Part shown: one piece after another, positions 7,238 to 56,485 of the stretch
Position numbering within the stretch: the first letter of the stretch is position 1
How the letters are laid out: each line of letters opens with the position of its first letter
Origin: Haladaptatus caseinilyticus
GTDB taxonomy: Archaea > Halobacteriota > Halobacteria > Halobacteriales > Haladaptataceae
Assembly (NCBI RefSeq): GCF_026248685.1
Contig: NZ_CP111036.1
Coordinates: 2,418,001 to 2,482,000 of the forward strand
DNA length: 64,000 bases
Direction of reading: 5' to 3'
Program-made: the position numbers and the translations under genes
Notes under the pieces: generated by a model
The model's input: only the letters and a program-made list of their open reading frames with translations
The model's database searches: none
Told to the model about the DNA's origin: nothing

Positions 7238-7274
7238 TTTAGGACAGCCTAAACCTAAATTAGGTTAGCCTAAA
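7238..7274. promoter_or_regulatory. Two tandem DtxR-type iron boxes
   Basis: Between the helicase stop and the ATG at 7276 are two copies of TTAGG-N4-CCTAA. The first is TTTAGGACAGCCTAAA at 7238-7253 and the second ATTAGGTTAGCCTAAA at 7259-7274, exactly 21 bases apart, so they face the same side of the helix. Bases TTAGGTTAGCCTAA in copy 2 equal positions 1-14 of the bacterial DtxR/IdeR consensus. The last copy abuts the start codon, which suggests a repressor that covers the promoter and start site. Confidence 0.75.
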
Positions 7275-7275
7275 C

Positions 7276-7728
7276 ATGGACGACATCCTCCGGCAGACAC
7301 GCAGAAAAATCGAAGCATTAGCGGTCGAAAGCGGTCAGGGTGGATTTTCGGTCGTTTGTGCGGACTCCGGTGAGTGTCCGATGCCGCTAACGGGAAATCA
7401 GTTCGAAAGTCACGACGATGCGTCCCGCGCTGCCGAACTCGCTCGTGGATATCGGAACGCACTCCGCGAGCACGACCCGAAAATACCCCACTATCGATTC
7501 GTCGTTACCGAGGAGCCTGCCCGTCCGCTACAGATGGCGGGCGTCCGCGAACGAACCGATGGCACGCGCGCCAACGGGCTTCCGCAAACGCAGCGCTCCG
7601 TCACGGTAGCCAGCGACGGCGAAGGGGAATGGCTCAGGATGGAGAATGCACCGCTCGTTCACCTCGCACGTGATTGTGGTCCCGTCGGCGACGATGCAGT
7701 CGGTAGACAACTCGACTCGAAGCTTTAG
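7276..7728 (+). CDS. Small soluble haloarchaeal protein, likely iron-regulated (DUF7552-like)
   Basis: A 150-residue protein beginning MDDILRQTRRKIEALAVE. The first ~85 residues (GGFSVVCADSGECPMPLTGNQFES, AAELARGYRNALREHDPKIPHYRFVV) resemble a haloarchaeal family of unknown function that I believe is DUF7552, although the number is uncertain. The C-terminal ~60 residues look low-complexity. There is no signal peptide, membrane segment or cofactor motif. The start codon is fixed by two tandem DtxR-type operators ending 1 base upstream, so expression is probably repressed in iron-replete cells. It converges on the next gene with a 4-base overlap. Confidence 0.65.
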   Translation: MDDILRQTRRKIEALAVESGQGGFSVVCADSGECPMPLTGNQFESHDDASRAAELARGYRNALREHDPKIPHYRFVVTEEPARPLQMAGVRERTDGTRANGLPQTQRSVTVASDGEGEWLRMENAPLVHLARDCGPVGDDAVGRQLDSKL

Positions 7729-46666: not shown

Positions 46667-48292
46667 CTATCCGAACTTCGCCTGTTCCTGGTCACGGAGT
46701 TCGATGCGCCTGATTTTTCCGCTGGACGTCTTCGGTAATTCGTCCACGAATTCGATTCTACGCGGATATTTGTACGGAGCGGTCTCTTCTTTCATGTACT
46801 CTTGGAGCTCCGCCACGAGTTCGTCACTACCTTCGTAGCCATCCGCGAGGATGACGTATGCTTTGACGACGTTCCCACGTTCTTCGTGGGGGCTGCCGAC
46901 TGCGGCCGCCTCAGCGACCGCCGAATGTCCGACGAGGGCGTCTTCGACCTCGAACGGGCCGATCCGGTAGCCCGAGGAGATGATGATGTCGTCCGCTCGC
47001 CCCTCGAAGAAGAATCGACCCTCCTCGTCCTCGCTCGCCAAGTCGCCGGTTCGGTAGTAGGCACCCGAGAACGTCTTCTCGTCCAATGCCGGTTTCTCGA
47101 AGTAGCCGTCGAAAATCGCGGGGCTATCGACGGGCACCGCGATTTCACCGATTTCCCCCTGCTCGACTTCCTCGTCGTCCACCGTGTCGATAATGGTCGT
47201 TCCGAGGCCGGGCGTCGGCTTGCCCATACTTCCCGGTTGTACGTCGATCCCGGGATAGTTCGTCACCAATGCGACCGTTTCGGTCTGGCCGTAGCCGTCC
47301 CGCGGCGTCACGCCGAAGGCGTCGTCGAACGCTTGAATCGGCTCGCGGTTCAGCGGTTCGCCGGCGGAAACGACCTCCTTCAGCGAAAGGTCGTAATCGG
47401 CCATGTCGTCTTCCTGCGTAAACATCCGATACTGGGTCGGTACCGCACAGAGTCGGGTGACACCCTCTTCTTCCATCAGGGAAAGGAACGTTTCTGGGTC
47501 GAAATCGCCCTGATATACGAACTGCGGTGCACCCGTCGTCAGCGCGACGCCGACCGGACTCCAGAACCATTTGGCCCATCCGGTACCCGTCGTCGCCCAG
47601 AGGAGTTCGTTCTCGAAATCCATCCCTTGTTCGACGCCCCACCAGTAGCGTCCGTTGACGCGCTCGAAGCAGTGCATCCAGCGGTGGCGGTGGAGGACGG
47701 GTTTCGGTTGGCCCGTCGTCCCGCTGGTGTAATTGATGGACATGGGTGACTGTGCCCCGATATCCGGACCATCGTGCTGCGTCGATTCGCCATCGAGCAG
47801 AGCCGCGAACGACTCCCAGTTGCCCGTCCGCGACCCGTCGAGCACGATCATCGTGTCGAGGGGTGTCTCGTCCAGAATCGGTTCGACCATGTCCGTGAGT
47901 TCGTCGTGACAAACGATGGTAGTCGCCTCGCAGTCGTTCGCGCGGAACTGGAGGTCTTTCGGCTTCAGCATGGCCGAACACGGAACCAGAATCGCACCGC
48001 GTTGTAGCGCCCCGAGTTGAATCGCGAACACGTCGGGATGACGCGGCAGGAGGTGCATCATCCGGTCACCTTCGCCGATGCCGAGCGATTCGAGGGCGTT
48101 TGCGAACCGATTCATGTCGTCGCGCAAGTCTGCATAGGTCCGGCTTTCCTCCGTTCCTTCGTCGTCGCGGAACTTTATCGCAAGTCGGTCGCCGAACGCC
48201 TCTGCATGCGATTCGATGACTGCCGGGAGATTGTAGGTCTCCGGGATATCCCACTCGAAATCCGAAAGTTCGCGCTGGTAGTCGATTTGCAT
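46667..48292 (-). CDS. AMP-forming acyl-CoA synthetase
   Basis: A 541-residue adenylate-forming ligase. Core motifs: P-loop SINYTSGTTGQPKPVLH (A3), ATTGTGWAKWFW, GYGQTETV (A5), GAYYRTGDLASEDEEGRFFFEGRADDIIISSGYRIGPFEVEDAL (A7-A8) and the catalytic lysine near the C-terminus in PKTSSGKIRR (A10). The sequence pattern is that of medium-chain or acetyl/propionyl-CoA synthetases; chain length cannot be read. Neighbouring thiolase/OB-fold genes on the same strand are also CoA enzymes, but a separate rightward SUI1 gene intervenes. Confidence 0.9.
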   Translation of the reverse strand: MQIDYQRELSDFEWDIPETYNLPAVIESHAEAFGDRLAIKFRDDEGTEESRTYADLRDDMNRFANALESLGIGEGDRMMHLLPRHPDVFAIQLGALQRGAILVPCSAMLKPKDLQFRANDCEATTIVCHDELTDMVEPILDETPLDTMIVLDGSRTGNWESFAALLDGESTQHDGPDIGAQSPMSINYTSGTTGQPKPVLHRHRWMHCFERVNGRYWWGVEQGMDFENELLWATTGTGWAKWFWSPVGVALTTGAPQFVYQGDFDPETFLSLMEEEGVTRLCAVPTQYRMFTQEDDMADYDLSLKEVVSAGEPLNREPIQAFDDAFGVTPRDGYGQTETVALVTNYPGIDVQPGSMGKPTPGLGTTIIDTVDDEEVEQGEIGEIAVPVDSPAIFDGYFEKPALDEKTFSGAYYRTGDLASEDEEGRFFFEGRADDIIISSGYRIGPFEVEDALVGHSAVAEAAAVGSPHEERGNVVKAYVILADGYEGSDELVAELQEYMKEETAPYKYPRRIEFVDELPKTSSGKIRRIELRDQEQAKFG

Positions 48293-48382: not shown

Positions 48383-48398
48383 TTTAGGAGGGCCTAAA
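48383..48398. promoter_or_regulatory. DtxR-type iron box upstream of RGP-like gene
   Basis: TTTAGGAGGGCCTAAA is a perfect dyad of TTTAGG/CCTAAA with a 4-base centre, the same build as the boxes at 7238 and 49644. It ends 29 bases before the ATG at 48428, where the promoter would be expected, and suggests iron-dependent repression. Confidence 0.75.
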
Positions 48399-48427: not shown

Positions 48428-49585
48428 ATGACCGAGGAGGATATCTGTGTCGTCGTCCCGACGATTCGGGAGTACGAGTGCATGCGGGAGTACTTCGACA
48501 ACGCTCGCGAGCACGGTTTCGATCTGAACCGACTGCACGTGGTGCTGGTCACGGAGGATTTCTGCGACGGCAACGAGATGGCCGCGATGCTCGATGATGA
48601 GGGTGTTTCCGGGGAAGTGTTCGACGGAACCCGTCGGGATGAGTGGTTCGAATCGCACGGAATCTCGGAGTACAGCCATCTGATTCCGGCGGCCAGTCAC
48701 GCCCAGACGAGTTTCGGCCTGCTGTATCTCTGGGCTGGCGATTTCGAGTATGGCTTTTTCATCGACGACGATACCCTTCCGCACGCCGAGGACGACTTTT
48801 TCGGTCGACATCTTCGTAATCTCCAGTTCGACGGCGAAATAGAGCAGGTGTCCTCCGACGAGCAATGGGTGAACGTGCTCTACCAGAACGCCGACGAACA
48901 CGGGCTGTACCCTCGTGGATACCCGTACGCCGCGATGGACGAGCACGTCGAAACCGAGACGACGCAGGTTTCCGACGTGGTCGCTTCACAGGGTCTCTGG
49001 ACGAACGTGCCCGACCTCGATGCAGTTCGAATCCTGATGGACGGCGATCTACAAGGACAGGCCCAGACCCGCACCTCGCGGGACGATTTCGAGGGGGATT
49101 TCGTCGCGGAACCCGGAAACTACCTCACGGTATGCTCGATGAACCTCGCGTTTCGTCGGGAAGTCGTTCCGGCGTTCTACCAACTCCCGATGGACGACAA
49201 CCCGTGGAACGTGGGACGGTTCGACGATATTTGGAGCGGGGTATTCCTGAAACGGGCCTGTGACCTCCTCGGCACGCAGATTTACAACGGCGGGCCGCTC
49301 TGTGAGCACAACAAGGCTCCACGTTCGACCTTCGGCGACCTTCAAAACGAGGTTGCCGGATTGGAACTGAACGAACATCTCTGGGATATCATCGACGGAA
49401 CGGGAGAAGGAGCGGACTGCTATGCAGACGTCTTCTCCGCGATGGCAGACGCTCTCGTCTCGGGCGACTGGTCAGAGTACGAGAACGGGGAGTTTTTCAC
49501 CTACATCGGCGAATACATGCACGACTGGTTGGCCTGTCTCGACGCACTCGACGCAGTTCGTGAACCCATTCCGGCGGACGACTGA
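48428..49585 (+). CDS. RGP-like (alpha-1,4-glucan-protein synthase) GT-A-type protein
   Basis: A 385-residue protein of the reversibly glycosylated polypeptide family (UDP-arabinopyranose mutase-like in plants). Key parts: DICVVVPTIREYECMREYFDNA at the N-terminus, the DDD metal-binding motif in GFFIDDDTLPHAEDDFF, RGYPYAAMDE, TVCSMNLAFRREVVPAFYQLP, RFDDIWSGVFLKRACDLLG, and CEHNKAP. Plant RGPs auto-glycosylate or isomerise UDP-sugars; the archaeal role is unknown. It has an iron box directly upstream and the ferric importer 80 bases downstream, so it belongs to an iron-regulated group. That is unexpected for a sugar enzyme. Confidence 0.82.
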   Translation: MTEEDICVVVPTIREYECMREYFDNAREHGFDLNRLHVVLVTEDFCDGNEMAAMLDDEGVSGEVFDGTRRDEWFESHGISEYSHLIPAASHAQTSFGLLYLWAGDFEYGFFIDDDTLPHAEDDFFGRHLRNLQFDGEIEQVSSDEQWVNVLYQNADEHGLYPRGYPYAAMDEHVETETTQVSDVVASQGLWTNVPDLDAVRILMDGDLQGQAQTRTSRDDFEGDFVAEPGNYLTVCSMNLAFRREVVPAFYQLPMDDNPWNVGRFDDIWSGVFLKRACDLLGTQIYNGGPLCEHNKAPRSTFGDLQNEVAGLELNEHLWDIIDGTGEGADCYADVFSAMADALVSGDWSEYENGEFFTYIGEYMHDWLACLDALDAVREPIPADD

Positions 49586-49643: not shown

Positions 49644-49659
49644 TTTAGGCTGGCCTAAT
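49644..49659. promoter_or_regulatory. DtxR-type iron box upstream of fbp operon
   Basis: TTTAGGCTGGCCTAAT keeps TTAGG and CCTAA at 4-base spacing, immediately after the TATA box. It ends 8 bases before the start codon of the iron-binding protein gene. Among the three loci this is the one whose target function, iron uptake, is clear, and it anchors the reading of the other two. Confidence 0.8.
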
Positions 49660-49666
49660 TTTAGTA

Positions 49667-50842
49667 ATGAGTGATAACGGTGTCGACGGCCCTGACCGAA
49701 TGGAGGTCGGTCGGCGGTCGGTTCTCGCTACGACTGCGGCGACGATGATTTTCGGACTCGCTGGATGTACATCACTGCCGGGCACTGGCGGGAACAAGGA
49801 CGAGACGAACAACGTCAGCAAGAGCGACATCATGGGTTCCGGCCCCCTCGTCGAAAACCGCCCGACACCGGGTGGGACCTCCATGGACGACATGCCGAAC
49901 CTCGCAGGCAAACTTACGCTCTATCTCGGTGGCGGAGAGGGTGGCCTGTATCAACGCCTCATCGAGTACATCGACGGCAAATATCCTGACCTCGAAATCC
50001 TCGTCAAAACCGATAGCTCGGCATCGTTGGCCAACACCATCATCGAAGAAACCAAGGGCAGTGGGAGCAGAGCCGATCTGTTTCTCTCCATCGACGCCGG
50101 CTCGCTCGGCGTCGTGGCCGACAGCGGAGCAACGGTTTCGCTCCCACGGACGGTGTTGAAGAAGGTTCAACCCCACTACCGTGGTCCGAACGGGAGCTGG
50201 GTCGGTATCGAAGGGCGAGCCCGTACCATCCCCTACAACACGGATAAACTATCTCGATCTGACATCCCGGACGATATCTTTGCACTACCGAACCAGCAGC
50301 GGTTCGATGGCGCGATGGGTTGGGCACCGAGTTACGGTGCATTCCAGTCGTTCATCACCGCGATGCGCGTGTTGAACGGTGATAAGAAAACGAAGGCGTG
50401 GCTCCAAGGGATGAAAAACCAGAAGGCGACGACGTACAAGGACGAATTCCTCGTTTCGAACGCCGTCGCCGACGGCGAAATCGCGGCCGGGTTCGCCAAC
50501 CATTATTATGCCCTCCGCGTACAATCCCAGCGACCGGACGCTCCGATAGACCTCGCGTTCACGAAAAACGACGCGGGCGCGCTTGTGAACGTCTCCGGCG
50601 CCGAAATCATCAAGGGAACTGATCAGAAAGAACTCGCAGGCAACTTCGCACTCCACCTCCTCTCCTCGGAGGCACAGGAGTTCTTCGCGACGGTTACGCT
50701 CGGCTACCCGATGATTTCGGGCGTGAAACCGGTCGGTGGTCTGCCACCGATCGAGAAGCTTCGCCCACCGGAGATGGACCTCTCAAAACTCTCGAACGTC
50801 CAACCGACTCTGGAACTGATGCGTGAGGTGGGAGTGCTGTAA
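49667..50842 (+). CDS. Ferric iron ABC transporter, binding lipoprotein (FbpA-like)
   Basis: A 391-residue Fe3+-binding protein. The signal VGRRSVLATTAATMIFGLAGC has a twin-arginine motif and lipobox. The mature part begins ~residue 40 and has the transferrin-like binding fold: LTLYLGGGEGGLYQRLIEYIDGKYP, ADLFLSIDAG, RARTIPYNTDKL, and EIAAGFANHYYALRVQ, whose adjacent tyrosines are the signature Fe3+ ligands of FbpA. It is first gene of an operon with permease and ATPase and follows an iron box by 8 bases. Confidence 0.92.
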   Translation: MSDNGVDGPDRMEVGRRSVLATTAATMIFGLAGCTSLPGTGGNKDETNNVSKSDIMGSGPLVENRPTPGGTSMDDMPNLAGKLTLYLGGGEGGLYQRLIEYIDGKYPDLEILVKTDSSASLANTIIEETKGSGSRADLFLSIDAGSLGVVADSGATVSLPRTVLKKVQPHYRGPNGSWVGIEGRARTIPYNTDKLSRSDIPDDIFALPNQQRFDGAMGWAPSYGAFQSFITAMRVLNGDKKTKAWLQGMKNQKATTYKDEFLVSNAVADGEIAAGFANHYYALRVQSQRPDAPIDLAFTKNDAGALVNVSGAEIIKGTDQKELAGNFALHLLSSEAQEFFATVTLGYPMISGVKPVGGLPPIEKLRPPEMDLSKLSNVQPTLELMREVGVL

Positions 50843-50846
50843 TCGT

Positions 50847-52463
50847 ATGGCGACACGCGACCGACTCCAGCGACTGGCTGCATCCGACACGGACAGCAGC
50901 GAGTCGTATCCAATCGGACTGACGCTCGTCAGTGGGGCCGTCGCCACAGCCGTCCTCTTTCCCATCCTTTGGTTAGTCGTTCGCGTCCTCGGGATGAACC
51001 CGAACGCAATCGTATCGAACCTCACCGCCGGTGCGACGCTAACGGTGGTCGCGAACAGTGCTGCCCTCGTGACCGCCGTGACCGCCGGTTCCATCCTGAT
51101 CGGCGTCCCGCTCGCGGTGCTGACCGTGCAGACCGATTTACCATTTCGACGATTCTGGACGGTCGTCGGCGCGCTGCCGCTCGTCATTCCAAGCTACATC
51201 GGCGCGTTCACGTACGCCTCCGCGCTTGGCCCGCAGGGTGAACTCGCCGACGCGCTCGCGCCGCTGGGAATCCAATCGATCCCATCGATCTACGGCTTCA
51301 CCGGTACGGCGCTCGTGCTGACGCTGTTCACCTACCCCTACGTCTTCCTGACGACGCGAGCGTCGCTGCTGTCTTTCGACTCGACACTCGTGGAAGCCGC
51401 ACGCACACTCAACCACTCGCGCTGGGAGGCGTTCAAGCGCGTCACCGTTCCCCAGATACTCCCCGGCATCGCGGCTGGCTCGCTCCTCGTCGGCCTTTAT
51501 GCACTGTCCGACTTCGGAACGCCGATGATTATGCAATTCGAGGTGTTTACCCAGCAGATCTACGTCCAGTACAACGCTTGGGGTCGCGACCCTGCGGCGT
51601 TACTCTCGCTCCAACTCGTCGCCGTCACCGTCGTCATTCTCGCGTTGGAGTCCCGAATTAGTGCCGGGGCGAAAACCGGTACCAGAAGTTCGAACCGGTC
51701 GGCGACGTTCAAACTCGGACCATGGCGCTATCCCGCGCTGCTGTTCAGTTCCGTCGTCGCATTTCTCTGCCTCGTCGTTCCGCTCGGAATGCTGGCATAC
51801 TGGATGCAGCGTGTCGAGCCGACGTACGGTTCGAGTACATTTACCTTCCAGTGGCAGTACGCGTGGAGTTCCGTCGCTGTTTCGGGACTTGCAGCACTCG
51901 CGGCGATCATCGCCGCGGTGCCCGTCGCGTATTTCGCTGCCCGACACTCCTCGACCCTTTCGAACGTCTTGGACCGTGCAACCTACGTTGGGTACGCGAT
52001 ACCCGGCGTCGTGCTAGGATTGTCGCTCGTCTCGTTTGGGTCCGCTTACGCACCTGCACTCTATCAGACGATACCGCTTCTTCTCTTCGCGTACGTCGTT
52101 CGATTCCTGCCGCAGGCCGTCGGCGCGGTCGGTTCGTCGGTCGTGCAAGTGGATCCGAAACTGACGGAGGCGGCACAGACGCTCGGTCATTCGCCGGCGG
52201 CGGCGTTCCGGAAGGTGACGCTTCCGCTCATCGCACCGGGTGTCGCGGCGGGTGCGGCGCTCGTGTTCCTGACGACGATGAAAGAACTTCCGGCGACGCT
52301 CATCCTCCGCCCACCGGAGTTCGAGACGCTCGTCACCTACATCTGGCAGGTTCAAGCATCTGGACTCTACGACAAAGCGGCGATACCGGCGCTCGTGCTT
52401 GTCGCTATCTCCGGCCTGTCGCTGCTCATCATCATAAAACGGGAGGACTACGATGTCAAATAG
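50847..52463 (+). CDS. Ferric iron ABC transporter, permease (FbpB-like)
   Basis: A 538-residue membrane protein of two fused homologous halves, ~12 helices. The two EAA loops that dock the ATPase are VEAARTLNHSRWEAFKRVTVPQILPGIAAG and LTEAAQTLGHSPAAAFRKVTLPLIAPGVAAG. A start 24 bases earlier is in frame but would overlap the binding-protein gene; the ATG at 50847 lies 4 bases after that stop. The end overlaps the ATPase gene by 11 bases, so the three are co-translated. Confidence 0.92.
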   Translation: MATRDRLQRLAASDTDSSESYPIGLTLVSGAVATAVLFPILWLVVRVLGMNPNAIVSNLTAGATLTVVANSAALVTAVTAGSILIGVPLAVLTVQTDLPFRRFWTVVGALPLVIPSYIGAFTYASALGPQGELADALAPLGIQSIPSIYGFTGTALVLTLFTYPYVFLTTRASLLSFDSTLVEAARTLNHSRWEAFKRVTVPQILPGIAAGSLLVGLYALSDFGTPMIMQFEVFTQQIYVQYNAWGRDPAALLSLQLVAVTVVILALESRISAGAKTGTRSSNRSATFKLGPWRYPALLFSSVVAFLCLVVPLGMLAYWMQRVEPTYGSSTFTFQWQYAWSSVAVSGLAALAAIIAAVPVAYFAARHSSTLSNVLDRATYVGYAIPGVVLGLSLVSFGSAYAPALYQTIPLLLFAYVVRFLPQAVGAVGSSVVQVDPKLTEAAQTLGHSPAAAFRKVTLPLIAPGVAAGAALVFLTTMKELPATLILRPPEFETLVTYIWQVQASGLYDKAAIPALVLVAISGLSLLIIIKREDYDVK

Positions 52464-53574
52464 TACGCTTCGATCACCATCGACCGAACACGAACCACAC
52501 GAAACTGAAAACCAGGCGGAGCCGGTTCTCGAACTCGACGATATCGCCAAGGAGTACGGTTCCGAGACGGCCGTCGAGAACCTCTCGCTCGACGTTCGGG
52601 AGGGAGAACTACTCACCATGCTCGGCCCATCCGGGTGTGGGAAAACGACAACCCTCCGGATGATGGCCGGACTGGAACGTCCCGACGGCGGGGAGATTCG
52701 CCTCCGTGGCGACCGAATTACCGGCGACGAATTCGTCGAACCGGAGAGCCGCGATGTGGGCATCGTCTTCCAAGATTTCGCGCTCTTTCCTCACCTCACT
52801 ATCGCAGAAAACATCGCCTTTGGACTCACGGAGGAGGACGATGCGGCAACACAAAAACGCGTCACCGAACTGCTCGACCTCGTCGGTCTGGAAAGTCATC
52901 GAGACCGAACGCCTGACCAGCTTTCCGGCGGTCAGAAACAGCGTGTGGCACTCGCTCGTTCGCTCGCTCCCGAACCCGAAATACTCCTGCTCGACGAACC
53001 GTTTTCGAACCTCGACGTGAAACTCCGCGTCGAGATGCGCGAGGAGGTTCGCGCCATCATAAAGGAAGCGGGAGTCACCGCCGTCTCGGTTACCCACGAC
53101 CAGGAGGAAGCGCTCTCCATCAGCGACCGGGTGGCCGTAATGAACGAGGGTCGTATCGAGCAAGTGGGCCGGCCCGAAATCGTCTTCGAACACCCCGAGT
53201 CACGGTTCGTCGCTGGTTTCCTCGGCCAGGCAGGGTTCGTCTCCGGACGACTGAGTGACGGCCACGTCGATACATCCATCAGGACGTTCAAAACCAACCA
53301 ACTCGAAGGACTTTCGGAGGAATACGATGGGGCCATCGTGGACGTTCTCGTCCGACCGGACGACCTCAAGGCCCGAGCAACCGAAGGCGATGCCGCCGAC
53401 GGCCACATCGTCCACCGGCAGTACACCGGTCCATCCTTCGTCTATCATGTCGAACTCGGTTCCGGCGAAGTCGTCTACTGTCAACACAATCACGTCAAGG
53501 ACTTCGAAATCGGCCAACCCGTGAACGTCGAACTGGTCGCTGATCACACACTCGCGTGGTATCCGACCCAGTGA
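52453..53574 (+). CDS. Ferric iron ABC transporter, ATPase (FbpC-like)
   Basis: A 373-residue ATPase. Walker A GPSGCGKTT, Q-loop VFQDFALFPHLT, signature LSGGQKQRVALARSL, Walker B EILLLDEPFSNLD, and H-loop SVTHDQEEALSISDRV. The C-terminal ~100 residues (VLVRPDDLKARATEGDAADGHIVHRQYTGPSFVYHVELGSGEVVYCQHNHVKDFEIGQPVNVELVADHTLAWYP) form a TOBE domain that in FbpC can bind effector. It powers the permease encoded immediately upstream. All active-site residues are present. Confidence 0.93.
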   Translation: MSNSTLRSPSTEHEPHETENQAEPVLELDDIAKEYGSETAVENLSLDVREGELLTMLGPSGCGKTTTLRMMAGLERPDGGEIRLRGDRITGDEFVEPESRDVGIVFQDFALFPHLTIAENIAFGLTEEDDAATQKRVTELLDLVGLESHRDRTPDQLSGGQKQRVALARSLAPEPEILLLDEPFSNLDVKLRVEMREEVRAIIKEAGVTAVSVTHDQEEALSISDRVAVMNEGRIEQVGRPEIVFEHPESRFVAGFLGQAGFVSGRLSDGHVDTSIRTFKTNQLEGLSEEYDGAIVDVLVRPDDLKARATEGDAADGHIVHRQYTGPSFVYHVELGSGEVVYCQHNHVKDFEIGQPVNVELVADHTLAWYPTQ

Positions 53575-53575
53575 G

Positions 53576-55630
53576 ATGACGACGCGACGGCGCGCCCGAA
53601 TTCTCGCCACTTTGCTCTCGATCGTCACCGCGGTCGTCGTGTTCTTCATCGCAACGAAGCTGTTTCCGTATCACTCCCTCAACCACGACGAGGGCGTTTA
53701 TCTCCAGCAAGCGGCGATGCTGATCGAGGGGAACCTGTTTCTCCATCCCCCCGTTCCCGACGCGTTCCGACCGTGGTTCTTCGTGCGGGATGGCGGACGG
53801 CTCTTCCCGAAGTACGCACCCGTCCCGGCGGCCATGTTCGCACTCGGAACGCTCGCCGGAAACGCTCGTCTTTCGCTGGCCGCCATCGCCGCCGCCAACG
53901 TTGGACTCACGTATGCGATTACCACCGAGTCATTCGACCGCAGGACTGGGGTGATCGCCGCCATCTTGCTTGCCACGTCACCGTTGTTTATCGTGGACTC
54001 CGCGATCTTTCTTCCCTACGCGCCGACGACGCTCTGGAACCTCCTGTTCGCGTTCGCGTACTTCCGTTCCGCCCGTCTCGAATCGCGGGGCTATTCGGTT
54101 CTCGCCGGTAGTGCCATCGGCATCTCGTTTTTCTCTCGACCGTACACCGCGATATTGTTCGCCGCGCCGTTCGTCGTTCACGCACTCCACGCGGCTCGGG
54201 CGACATGGTTCGACCGCGACGTCGTTTCACGACTCACAATCACTGGCGTCACCGGACTGTTCGGTGTCGGCATCACGCTAGGATACAATGCCATCGTCAC
54301 CGGCTCTCCGTTCGTATTCCCGTACGAAGCCTTCGCTCCCCTCGATGGGCTGGGCTTCGGACACCGAAAACTGCTCGATTACGAACAGCAGTATACCGTT
54401 GGACTCGCGCTGCGATCGAACGCAGGGGTTCTCGCCGCCTTGTTCACCAGGTGGGTTGCCGGTGGTATCCTCGGAACGGGGCTGGCGGCAGTCGGTCTCG
54501 TCGCCGGGATTCACCGGAGCCATTCGAACCATTGGCGGGACCGATTCACGCAGAATCAAGCGCGAGCGATCCTCGCAGGGCTGTTCGTTTCCATCCCTCT
54601 CGGCAACGTCTACTTTTGGGGAAACCGGAACATCGTCGCTACGCTCTCCGATCCAAACGACGGTCTGATTCACTTCCTCGGTCCGTACTATCACTTCGAT
54701 ATCCTCCTCCCGATGGCCGTTTTCGGAGCGTTCGGTGCCATCACCCTTTCCCGATGGCTTCGAAACCGGGTGGATAGATTCGTCCGAACCCGCCGGACGA
54801 GAACGGTGTTTGTCACCATTCTCGTCCTTTCTGCGTCCGTGTTTGCCGGTGTAACTGCTTCGCTTGCGACGGCCCCGCTTCAGGCGAACGCAACGGTTAC
54901 CGACCAGTATCAGGTGGCGTACGAACCCGTCGAAAATCGCTCGTTCGAGAACGCTCTCGTCTTCGTCCCGACGACGCACGGCGATTGGCTGAACCACCCG
55001 TTTCAATCGTTCCGAAACGACCCGGGGTTCGACGGGGAGGTCGTGTACGCGCTCGACGGTCCCCGACGATTCGCCGTCGTCGATAGCTATCCGAATCGCA
55101 CCCTGTATCGGTACGTCTACCGCGGGCAGTGGGAACCGTACTCCGGAACCGCGGTCGAACCACGACTCCAGCGGGTCAGAGCGGTTCGCGGTGACTCGGT
55201 ATCTCTCCATACGACCGTCGGACTTCCGCAAGCAGTCGATTCGGCGTCGATACGACTGGCGTCTGACGAGGGGGATACGTACTACGTCGCCGATGGCGAC
55301 GATTCGGCGCGATTTCGTCTCGTCGTCTCCGACGGACGCGCACGATTGGACGGTTCGACTGTTCGCTCAGTGGGGAACGACGCGGCGATTCCAGTCGGTC
55401 GAACCGACACGCTTGCTGTCGAGGTGTACGTCGAAAACGCCGACGGAACCGGTTTTTCCTACATTATTCGGCTCCCAGTCGAACGACGAGACGGGACGAT
55501 TCGGGCGCTGTCACCGTACCGAGGGCTCTGTCGCGTCCCGAGAAATTGCGGTGATGATGGGATTACCTACCTTCCGGACGAAACCCGGCCCGACGTCTCC
55601 CTTACAACACGGTTGAACGGTTCAGCGTGA
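53576..55630 (+). CDS. GT39/ArnT-like membrane glycosyltransferase
   Basis: A 684-residue protein with ~11 N-terminal membrane helices (~1-430) and a soluble C-terminal domain. The first extracytoplasmic loop has SLNHDEGVYLQQAAMLIEGNLFLHPPVPDAF, the D-E-x-x-Y motif of GT39/ArnT/PMT-fold enzymes, which use lipid-linked sugar donors outside the cell. The C-terminal part (~470-684) is beta-rich and may bind glycan. Its ATG lies 1 base after the ATPase stop, so it seems transcribed with the iron operon although its function would be surface glycosylation. Donor and acceptor are unknown. Confidence 0.8.
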   Translation: MTTRRRARILATLLSIVTAVVVFFIATKLFPYHSLNHDEGVYLQQAAMLIEGNLFLHPPVPDAFRPWFFVRDGGRLFPKYAPVPAAMFALGTLAGNARLSLAAIAAANVGLTYAITTESFDRRTGVIAAILLATSPLFIVDSAIFLPYAPTTLWNLLFAFAYFRSARLESRGYSVLAGSAIGISFFSRPYTAILFAAPFVVHALHAARATWFDRDVVSRLTITGVTGLFGVGITLGYNAIVTGSPFVFPYEAFAPLDGLGFGHRKLLDYEQQYTVGLALRSNAGVLAALFTRWVAGGILGTGLAAVGLVAGIHRSHSNHWRDRFTQNQARAILAGLFVSIPLGNVYFWGNRNIVATLSDPNDGLIHFLGPYYHFDILLPMAVFGAFGAITLSRWLRNRVDRFVRTRRTRTVFVTILVLSASVFAGVTASLATAPLQANATVTDQYQVAYEPVENRSFENALVFVPTTHGDWLNHPFQSFRNDPGFDGEVVYALDGPRRFAVVDSYPNRTLYRYVYRGQWEPYSGTAVEPRLQRVRAVRGDSVSLHTTVGLPQAVDSASIRLASDEGDTYYVADGDDSARFRLVVSDGRARLDGSTVRSVGNDAAIPVGRTDTLAVEVYVENADGTGFSYIIRLPVERRDGTIRALSPYRGLCRVPRNCGDDGITYLPDETRPDVSLTTRLNGSA

Positions 55631-55659: not shown

Positions 55660-56364
55660 TCAACGGAATCGTTCTTGGAGTGCGACCTTTGCGATGGACC
55701 CCGCGATTTCGGCCCCACCTGAAAATGGGTCGAGTTTCGTCTCCCCCTTTCGCTCGGCGTAGTCGATAGGAATCTCTCGAACCCGATATCCCCGCATGAG
55801 CGGCCGAATCAATAACTCCGCCGAAAGACCGGTGTTCTGCGTCCAGTCTATCGTTTCGATAACGTCCCGACGATAGGCACGCATTCCCGTCGTCGTGTCG
55901 TGAACGCGCTTTCCCATCAACACGGATGCGAGGACGGCGAACGCCCGATTTCCCCACCGGTTGATCTCCGGCATGGCATCCGCACCATAGTATAGTCTAT
56001 CGCCGCTCACCACGTCGTAGCCCTCGTTCAGCAGGTCGAGGAATTCGGGCAACTGGTCCATCGGATAGGTGTCGTCGCAGTCCGTGGTTACGACGACCGG
56101 TCGGTCCGGCGCGAGCAGAGCGGCCCGCACCGCGATGCCGTATCCTTGCGGTTGTTGTCGGATGACACGGGCACCGTGTTCCGCCGCGATTTCGGGCGTT
56201 TCGTCGGATGACCCATCGACACAGACGACTTCCGCCCTTCCGTCCGTTACACGATCGATATCAGCGAGCACTGACCTGATTGCCGCCTCCTCGTTGTATG
56301 TTCCCATGACGACACTCACGTCGTCGAACGTGAACTCGCTGCCGTCCCGTGCTTCGGGTTGCAT
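55660..56364 (-). CDS. Family 2 glycosyltransferase, dolichyl-phosphate-sugar type
   Basis: A 234-residue GT2 enzyme of the DPM1-like group. VSVVMGTYNEEAAIRSVLADID begins the GT-A fold; VVTTDCDDTYPMDQLPEFLD holds the D-x-D metal motif; EINRWGNRAFAVLASVLMGKRVHDTTTGMRAYRRDVIE is the acceptor-side segment with the usual T-D-T-T-x-G-x-R. It probably loads a sugar onto dolichyl phosphate for N-glycan assembly (Agl-type pathway). It converges with the GT39 gene, whose product would use such lipid-linked sugars. Confidence 0.85.
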   Translation of the reverse strand: MQPEARDGSEFTFDDVSVVMGTYNEEAAIRSVLADIDRVTDGRAEVVCVDGSSDETPEIAAEHGARVIRQQPQGYGIAVRAALLAPDRPVVVTTDCDDTYPMDQLPEFLDLLNEGYDVVSGDRLYYGADAMPEINRWGNRAFAVLASVLMGKRVHDTTTGMRAYRRDVIETIDWTQNTGLSAELLIRPLMRGYRVREIPIDYAERKGETKLDPFSGGAEIAGSIAKVALQERFR

Positions 56365-56485
56365 CTATCCTCGGATAGCCACGGACAGTACTTGAATTTT
56401 AGGTTTGCCAAAAACAGTATCAGAACACGTGTTAGCCGCTTCGATCGCCGATATATATTTTACCAAATTCGTTGTACCCCAACGG

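What the first reader, a model, noticed from the sequence alone, without database searches (positions are those of the whole stretch)
48428..49585. RGP-like sugar enzyme inside an iron-controlled cluster
An RGP/alpha-1,4-glucan-protein synthase homolog with an intact DDD motif has its own perfect iron box and sits directly before the ferric importer. RGP proteins are known from plants as UDP-arabinopyranose mutases, and no iron link is established. It may make or modify a glycan or glycosylated siderophore needed under iron starvation.
Basis: partly seen in the sequence, partly recalled or inferred. Interest (0 to 1): 0.62.

Follow-up and report, generated by a model that had tools for sequence, protein, structure and literature searches.

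The report
Iron-controlled sugar-enzyme and iron-importer gene cluster
In most salt-loving archaea, a sugar-modifying enzyme related to a plant cell-wall enzyme sits beside a ferric-iron importer and a surface sugar-attaching enzyme under the same iron-type switch, suggesting that these cells change their surface sugars when they run short of iron.

Summary
The gene at 48428-49585 is a divergent PF03214/GT75 protein with the DDD motif and catalytic-type Arg/Asp residues intact. It has a perfect TTAGGN4CCTAA box 44 nt before its ATG and is followed by an FbpA-type Fe(III) ABC importer with its own box. Across 391 haloarchaeal genomes, RGP and the GT39/PMT-like membrane glycosyltransferase at the end of this operon occur in the same 306 and are both undetected in the other 85. 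In 63 distinct loci, RGP is followed by PMT in 63, by the ferric-binding protein in 62, and carries a perfect box in 59. A dolichyl-phosphate hexose transferase, NDP-sugar epimerase, UPF0104 flippase-type protein and GMC sugar-oxidase-type flavoprotein recur, several with own boxes. So a nucleotide-sugar to surface-glycan pathway appears wired to iron import. Limits: RGP-less genomes can keep the boxed importer, and one genus (4 of 4 genomes) kept RGP and PMT without the importer, its box decayed or gone. A glycosylated siderophore is not supported. The acidic residue needed for mutase activity in bacterial MtdL is missing, so the reaction is unproven. Both AlphaFold models failed.

The parts
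48384..48397 (+). Iron-type box TTAGGAGGGCCTAA, 44 nt upstream of the RGP start codon
   Evidence: perfect box 25-69 nt before RGP in 59 of 63 distinct loci
48428..49585 (+). RGP: divergent PF03214/GT75 protein, 385 aa (DDD113-115, R163, D196, R264, D267, H294)
49645..49658 (+). Second iron-type box TTAGGCTGGCCTAA, before the ferric-binding protein
   Evidence: SBP box in 60 of 62 loci
49667..50842 (+). FbpA-type Fe(III)-binding lipoprotein (SBP), NHYY tandem-tyrosine motif at 278-281
   Evidence: best PDB match 7w3w, E 4e-56
50847..52463 (+). ABC permease (BPD_transp_1); relatives annotated 'iron ABC transporter permease'
52453..53574 (+). ABC transporter ATP-binding subunit
53576..55630 (+). 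PMT: GT39/PMT_2-like membrane glycosyltransferase with C-terminal DUF7846; same 306 of 391 genomes as RGP
55660..56364 (-). Dolichyl-phosphate hexose transferase (DPHT; NF041391, 404.8 bits, cut-off 375), convergent
56399..56412 (-). Box with one mismatch (TTAGGTTTGCCAAA on the + strand) upstream of the dolichyl-phosphate hexose transferase
   Evidence: this family has a perfect box in 27 of 58 loci

Best explanation
RGP is the nucleotide-sugar step of a haloarchaeal surface-glycan pathway placed under iron control together with an Fe(III) ABC importer. Proposed route: a GalE-type epimerase supplies an NDP-sugar; RGP (GT75) binds it through its DDD motif and a metal, forms a transient sugar adduct on R163 with D267 as base, and releases an altered (probably furanose) NDP-sugar; the dolichyl-phosphate hexose transferase loads a sugar on dolichyl phosphate; a UPF0104 protein flips it; the GT39/PMT-like enzyme attaches it to an acceptor outside the cell; the GMC/gluconate-dehydrogenase-3 pair may oxidise it there. 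When iron is replete a DtxR/FerR-type repressor covers the box; when iron falls, importer and glycan enzymes are made together. SHOWN: gene content, synteny, boxes, co-occurrence, conserved residues, ferric type of the importer. INFERRED: order of steps, sugar identity, furanose product, regulator, export of the oxidase, and that the glycan aids iron capture at the cell surface.
For: RGP in 306 of 391 Halobacteria genomes; PMT in the same 306 (handle lists transcribed by hand), and 25 of 25 RGP-plus versus 0 of 25 RGP-minus in a separate call (64). In 63 distinct loci PMT follows RGP in 63 and SBP in 62. Perfect box before RGP 59 of 63, SBP 60 of 62, PMT 0 of 63 (as expected for an internal gene); 201 boxes against 0 reversed controls in 1.03 Mb. 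UPF0104 directly upstream in 24, epimerase in 18, GMC oxidoreductase in the cluster in 37 of 63. RGP matches GT75 MtdL structures (E 9e-24) with DDD, R159, D195, R257, D260 and H287 equivalents invariant in 64 of 64. SBP matches ferric-binding proteins. In Haloferax volcanii a GalE-family epimerase (HVO_0655, +12.7) and a UPF0104 protein (HVO_1859, +11.6) are among the proteins most raised in iron starvation (PMC11349517 section 3.3); orthology to the cluster genes was not tested.
Against: RGP-less genomes can keep the importer: ten such loci (nine genomes) all have SBP and permease, 7 of 10 with a box (up to one mismatch) within 200 nt before SBP, so the glycan genes are not needed for this import. 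Genus g66 keeps RGP, PMT and DPHT in 4 of 4 genomes with no SBP match, the box decayed (2 mismatches) in 3 and absent in 1, so the glycan has a use without this importer. The acidic residue D87, required for mutase activity in MtdL, is replaced (H91, or S90). No expression datum for RGP itself was found: the Haloferax iron paper has neither 'RGP' nor 'glucan' in its main text.
Confidence: 0.55

Rival explanations
1. The glycan genes modify the importer itself: the PMT-like enzyme O-glycosylates the linker of the Fe-binding lipoprotein at the conserved G-S/Y-G motif just after the lipid anchor, protecting it or helping it capture iron.
For: RGP-SBP-PMT order is nearly fixed. A G-S/Y-G(S) motif in the SBP linker was found in 62 of 62 RGP-plus SBPs and in 4 of 10 SBPs from RGP-less genomes by a permissive pattern.
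Against: RGP and PMT persist without SBP in 4 of 4 g66 genomes. The motif difference may simply mark SBP subfamilies, and the pattern was fitted after seeing the sequences.
Confidence: 0.12
2. RGP is a GT75 protein without mutase activity: a self-glycosylating priming or binding protein, or a transferase using another (for example acidic) sugar, feeding a general exopolysaccharide; the iron box adjusts the cell surface in low iron.
For: No acidic residue at the position of MtdL D87 (H91 in 63 of 63 orthologues), whose mutation abolished mutase activity (PMC9937993 passages). The UAM chain 8cid also lacks one there (alignment). R163, D267 and DDD remain.
Against: Arg, Asp and metal-binding residues are all kept; no assay data. 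H91 may serve in place of Asp.
Confidence: 0.23
3. Co-regulation by neighbourhood: the glycan operon merely sits beside the importer and its box has no functional meaning for iron.
For: Box absent or decayed where the importer is missing; the importer exists without the glycan genes in other genomes.
Against: RGP has its own box in front of it, separate from the SBP box, in 59 of 63 loci drawn from many genera; DPHT (27 of 58), PERM (19 of 60, mostly when displaced) and flippase genes (4 loci) have own boxes too.
Confidence: 0.08

Closest known systems
GT75 NDP-pyranose mutases: plant UAM/RGP and bacterial MtdL, Hyg20 (PF03214)
   Same: Profile match over cut-off, DDD metal/nucleotide motif, glycosylated-type Arg, base-type Asp, His metal ligand
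   Different: Low score (45-67 bits in the sampled haloarchaea versus 452 for the plant-like copy in G037/Salarchaeum), no acidic residue at MtdL D87, genomic link to Fe(III) import
FbpABC/HitABC/SfuABC ferric ABC importers
   Same: SBP matches solved ferric-binding proteins with the tandem tyrosines aligned; permease and ATPase follow
   Different: Genes for a nucleotide-sugar enzyme and a membrane glycosyltransferase flank it
Haloarchaeal dolichyl-phosphate sugar pathways: HVO_1613 and AepG exopolysaccharide glucuronosyltransferase (PMC9943897)
   Same: DolP-sugar GT2 step feeding a surface polymer; AepG deletion removes GlcA from the acidic exopolysaccharide (passages)
   Different: AepG has C-terminal membrane segments, and that paper's main text has 0 hits for 'iron'
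Mycobacterial polyprenyl-phospho-arabinofuranose and GT-C arabinofuranosyltransferases (recalled, no call)
   Same: Lipid-linked furanose used by a GT-C membrane enzyme
   Different: Different enzymes make the furanose; no iron control known to me

Membership tests
PF03214/GT75 (RGP) | Score above curated family cut-off | tested here: met
   59.3 bits versus 23.8
PF03214/GT75 (RGP) | DXD (DDD) metal/nucleotide motif | tested here: met
   D113-D115 in 64 of 64
PF03214/GT75 (RGP) | Autoglycosylated Arg (MtdL R159) and base Asp (D260) | tested here: met
   R163 and D267, 64 of 64
GT75 NDP-pyranose mutase activity | Acidic residue equivalent to MtdL D87 | tested here: not met
   H91 in 63 of 63 orthologues by the ungapped MtdL alignment, S90 if shifted by one; so it is filed as a GT75 relative, not as a mutase
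GT75 NDP-pyranose mutase activity | Pyranose-furanose interconversion | not testable with these tools
   Needs enzyme assay
FbpA-type ferric importer | Sequence relation to Fe(III)-binding proteins with tandem Tyr | tested here: met
   7w3w E 4e-56; N278/Y280/Y281 invariant in 62 of 62
Haloarchaeal DtxR/FerR-type iron regulon | Shared palindromic box in front of several iron genes of the same genome | tested here: met
   Boxes at siderophore-type, FecCD, sufCB and fbp genes; regulator name and consensus are recalled or cited second-hand
Haloarchaeal DtxR/FerR-type iron regulon | Repressor binding and iron-dependent transcription of RGP | not testable with these tools
   Needs ChIP/EMSA and RT-qPCR
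Siderophore biosynthesis cluster | Siderophore biosynthesis genes next to RGP | tested here: not met
   None among the genes recognised; such a gene lies elsewhere in the genome (L111)

The most novel reading that the evidence does not exclude
Haloarchaea answer iron starvation with a cell-anchored iron trap: a surface glycan built from GT75-made furanosyl units, flipped on dolichyl phosphate, attached by a PMT-type enzyme and oxidised outside the cell by an exported GMC oxidoreductase, so that its carboxylates hold Fe(III) beside the FbpA-type lipoprotein that takes it in. That would be a siderophore-independent, glycan-based iron acquisition system.
Probability: 0.18. Interest if true: 0.85.

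Novelty: new variant of a known kind. Interest (0 to 1): 0.64.

Why it matters
It ties a widespread but unassigned haloarchaeal gene to two measurable processes. If true, archaeal surface glycosylation is part of iron homeostasis, GT75 enzymes have a role beyond plant walls and antibiotics, and standard deletion mutants in Haloferax could test it directly.

Tried and rejected
AlphaFold2 on 5-row alignments failed for RGP (mean pLDDT 39.2) and SBP (35.0); no fold search was run on them. Glycosylated siderophore: rejected, no such genes recognised in the cluster. Q229-to-M238 as a special feature: dropped, because the plant-like copy L105 has M there too. PF03214 outside Halobacteria: in 294 genomes of the phylum the 40 genomes with a match were all labelled own, same family or same order. 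Literature: none of the listings of the searches showed a paper joining this RGP to iron in archaea, but long result sets were listed only in part, the two papers most likely to list the gene (Leyn and Rodionov 2015; the Haloferax TroR network paper, DOI recalled) are not held, and supplements could not be read, so prior mention in a regulon table is not excluded. HVO_1859 as the flippase next to Haloferax RGP: not established; HVO_1861 and HVO_1862 are ThiL and a protease homologue.

Full report
WHAT IS THERE. The finding's ORF 48428-49585 (+) encodes 385 aa and matches PF03214 RGP at 59.3 bits against a cut-off of 23.8. It heads a run of genes on one strand: FbpA-type binding lipoprotein (SBP, 49667-50842), permease (PERM, 50847-52463), ATPase (52453-53574) and a GT39/PMT_2-like membrane protein with DUF7846 (PMT, 53576-55630); a dolichyl-phosphate hexose transferase (DPHT, 55660-56364, NF041391, over its cut-off) converges on it. 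An AMP-binding (acyl-CoA-synthetase-type) gene (46667-48292) diverges upstream.

THE BOX. TTAGGN4CCTAA occurs perfectly at 48384 and 49645, twice near 7240, and with one mismatch at 56399; 5 matches at up to one mismatch against 0.32 expected. The genome has 13 sites against 2 for the reversed pattern. Other sites precede or touch a diaminobutyrate transaminase followed by a decarboxylase-like frame, a Peripla_BP_2/FecCD importer, sufC-sufB, and a Gluconate_2-dh3 plus GMC oxidoreductase pair; sites in L110 and L112 have no clear target and the one in L113 lies between a DUF373 and a DUF5059/cupredoxin protein. This supports an iron box without assuming it. The name FerR/DtxR for the regulator is second-hand (PMC11349517, citing Leyn and Rodionov 2015).

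CONSERVATION. RGP was found in 306 of 391 Halobacteria genomes (66 of 86 genera). The PMT-like protein was found in 306 of 391, the same genomes. In a separate call PMT was in 25 of 25 RGP-plus and 0 of 25 RGP-minus genomes, including six RGP-minus genomes of the window's own genus, so the pair comes and goes together. SBP in the same 50 genomes: 25 of 25 and 17 of 25, the latter mostly at 33-41% identity.

I read 65 loci around RGP (the window, L024-L027 and L050-L109). Two were dropped for counts: L060 (same contig as L024) and L105 (a distant paralogue). In the remaining 63: PMT follows in 63, SBP in 62 (the miss is L097); a perfect box lies before RGP in 59 (25-69 nt from the predicted start), before SBP in 60 of 62, PMT 0 of 63, DPHT 27 of 58, PERM 19 of 60, ATPase 1 of 31; 201 boxes in 1.03 Mb against 0 reversed controls. 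Three of the four RGP misses have a one-mismatch box (L077, L078, L096). In roughly half the loci PERM directly follows SBP as in the window; in most of the rest it lies further downstream, often with its own box. UPF0104 (LPG_synthase_TM) lies directly upstream of RGP in 24 of 63, a GalE-type epimerase before it in 18, and a GMC oxidoreductase is in the cluster in 37. Named examples: Salarchaeum sp. JOR-1 and Halobaculum marinum plasmids, annotated 'alpha-1 4-glucan-protein synthase' and 'iron ABC transporter permease', and in Salarchaeum also 'glycosyltransferase family 39 protein', 'gluconate 2-dehydrogenase subunit 3 family protein', 'GMC family oxidoreductase' and 'dolichyl-phosphate hexose transferase'.

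THE ENZYME. phmmer aligns RGP with GT75 structures 7yua, 7xpr and relatives (E 9e-24; taken as MtdL because the residue numbers fit PMC9937993) and weakly with UAM 8cid (0.0043). Using the residues named in PMC9937993 (passages), the equivalents of D109-D111, R159, D195, R257, D260 and H287 are invariant in 64 of 64. MtdL D87, needed for mutase activity, is H91 in all 63 orthologues, or S90 if the alignment shifts by one. R289 and H292 become K and R. So the catalytic core is kept and the sugar pocket altered. G037, which carries the Salarchaeum JOR-1 plasmid locus, also has an ordinary plant-like GT75 (452 bits; 8cid E 1.6e-81; no box within 300 nt), 28% identical to the iron-linked one.

THE IMPORTER. 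SBP's best solved relatives are ferric-binding proteins (7w3w, E 4e-56; 29 sequences in all, most of them named as iron-binding), with the NHYY motif aligned to N-x-Y-Y in the three alignments shown, and N278, Y280, Y281 invariant in 62 of 62.

NATURAL EXPERIMENTS. Ten importer loci from nine RGP-less genomes: all have SBP and permease; 7 have a box (up to one mismatch) within 200 nt before SBP, L122 only about 1.3 kb upstream, L124 and L126 none. Genus g66: 4 of 4 genomes keep RGP, PMT and DPHT but no SBP match was found (which had no positive control of its own; the same query matched 42 of 50 genomes). In three of them a two-mismatch relic sits at -28, where the box should be; in the fourth none. 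Reading: in this genus the iron switch on RGP faded together with the importer, which argues for a functional tie; but the glycan has another use too. This rests on one genus.

MECHANISM. See Best explanation. The order epimerase, GT75, DolP transfer, flipping, PMT transfer, oxidation is inferred from families. The flippase role of UPF0104 is a published prediction (PMC5898192, passages). Independent support: under iron starvation Haloferax volcanii raises a GalE-family epimerase 12.7-fold and a UPF0104 protein 11.6-fold (PMC11349517 section 3.3, read in full), but I could not show that these are the cluster's orthologues, and RGP is not named in that main text. No transcript, binding or enzyme datum for RGP itself was seen.

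NOVELTY. The parts are known families; the iron-wired combination did not appear in the listings of the searches named in Tried and rejected, with the two key regulon papers unavailable.

Noticed in passing
window 7239-7273 and 7276-7728: Two perfect iron-type boxes 21 nt apart directly before a DUF7552 protein of unknown function; similar-looking proteins follow the importer in L119 and L120, the latter with a box upstream. DUF7552 may be a new iron-regulon member.
   Followed up: partly
L114 (G000 C1:2394736) and L117:17110-19274: Gluconate_2-dh3 plus GMC oxidoreductase (weakly pyranose-oxidase-like) carries an iron-type box in the window's genome and sits inside the RGP cluster in 37 of 63 loci: a probable iron-regulated sugar oxidase.
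   Followed up: partly
L105:6986-7957: G037 (Salarchaeum JOR-1 plasmid locus) carries an additional ordinary plant-like UDP-arabinopyranose-mutase-type GT75, without a box.
   Followed up: partly
L113:1722-5389: Iron-type box between a DUF373 gene and a DUF5059/cupredoxin gene, both possible iron-regulated genes.
   Followed up: no
L133, L134, L135, L136 upstream of RGP: Genus g66 has decayed or lost boxes before RGP and no ferric SBP match.
   Followed up: yes
window 46667-48292: Divergent AMP-binding (acyl-CoA-synthetase-type) gene shares the intergenic region with the RGP box; the same neighbour occurs in L053-L055. The box may act on both.
   Followed up: no
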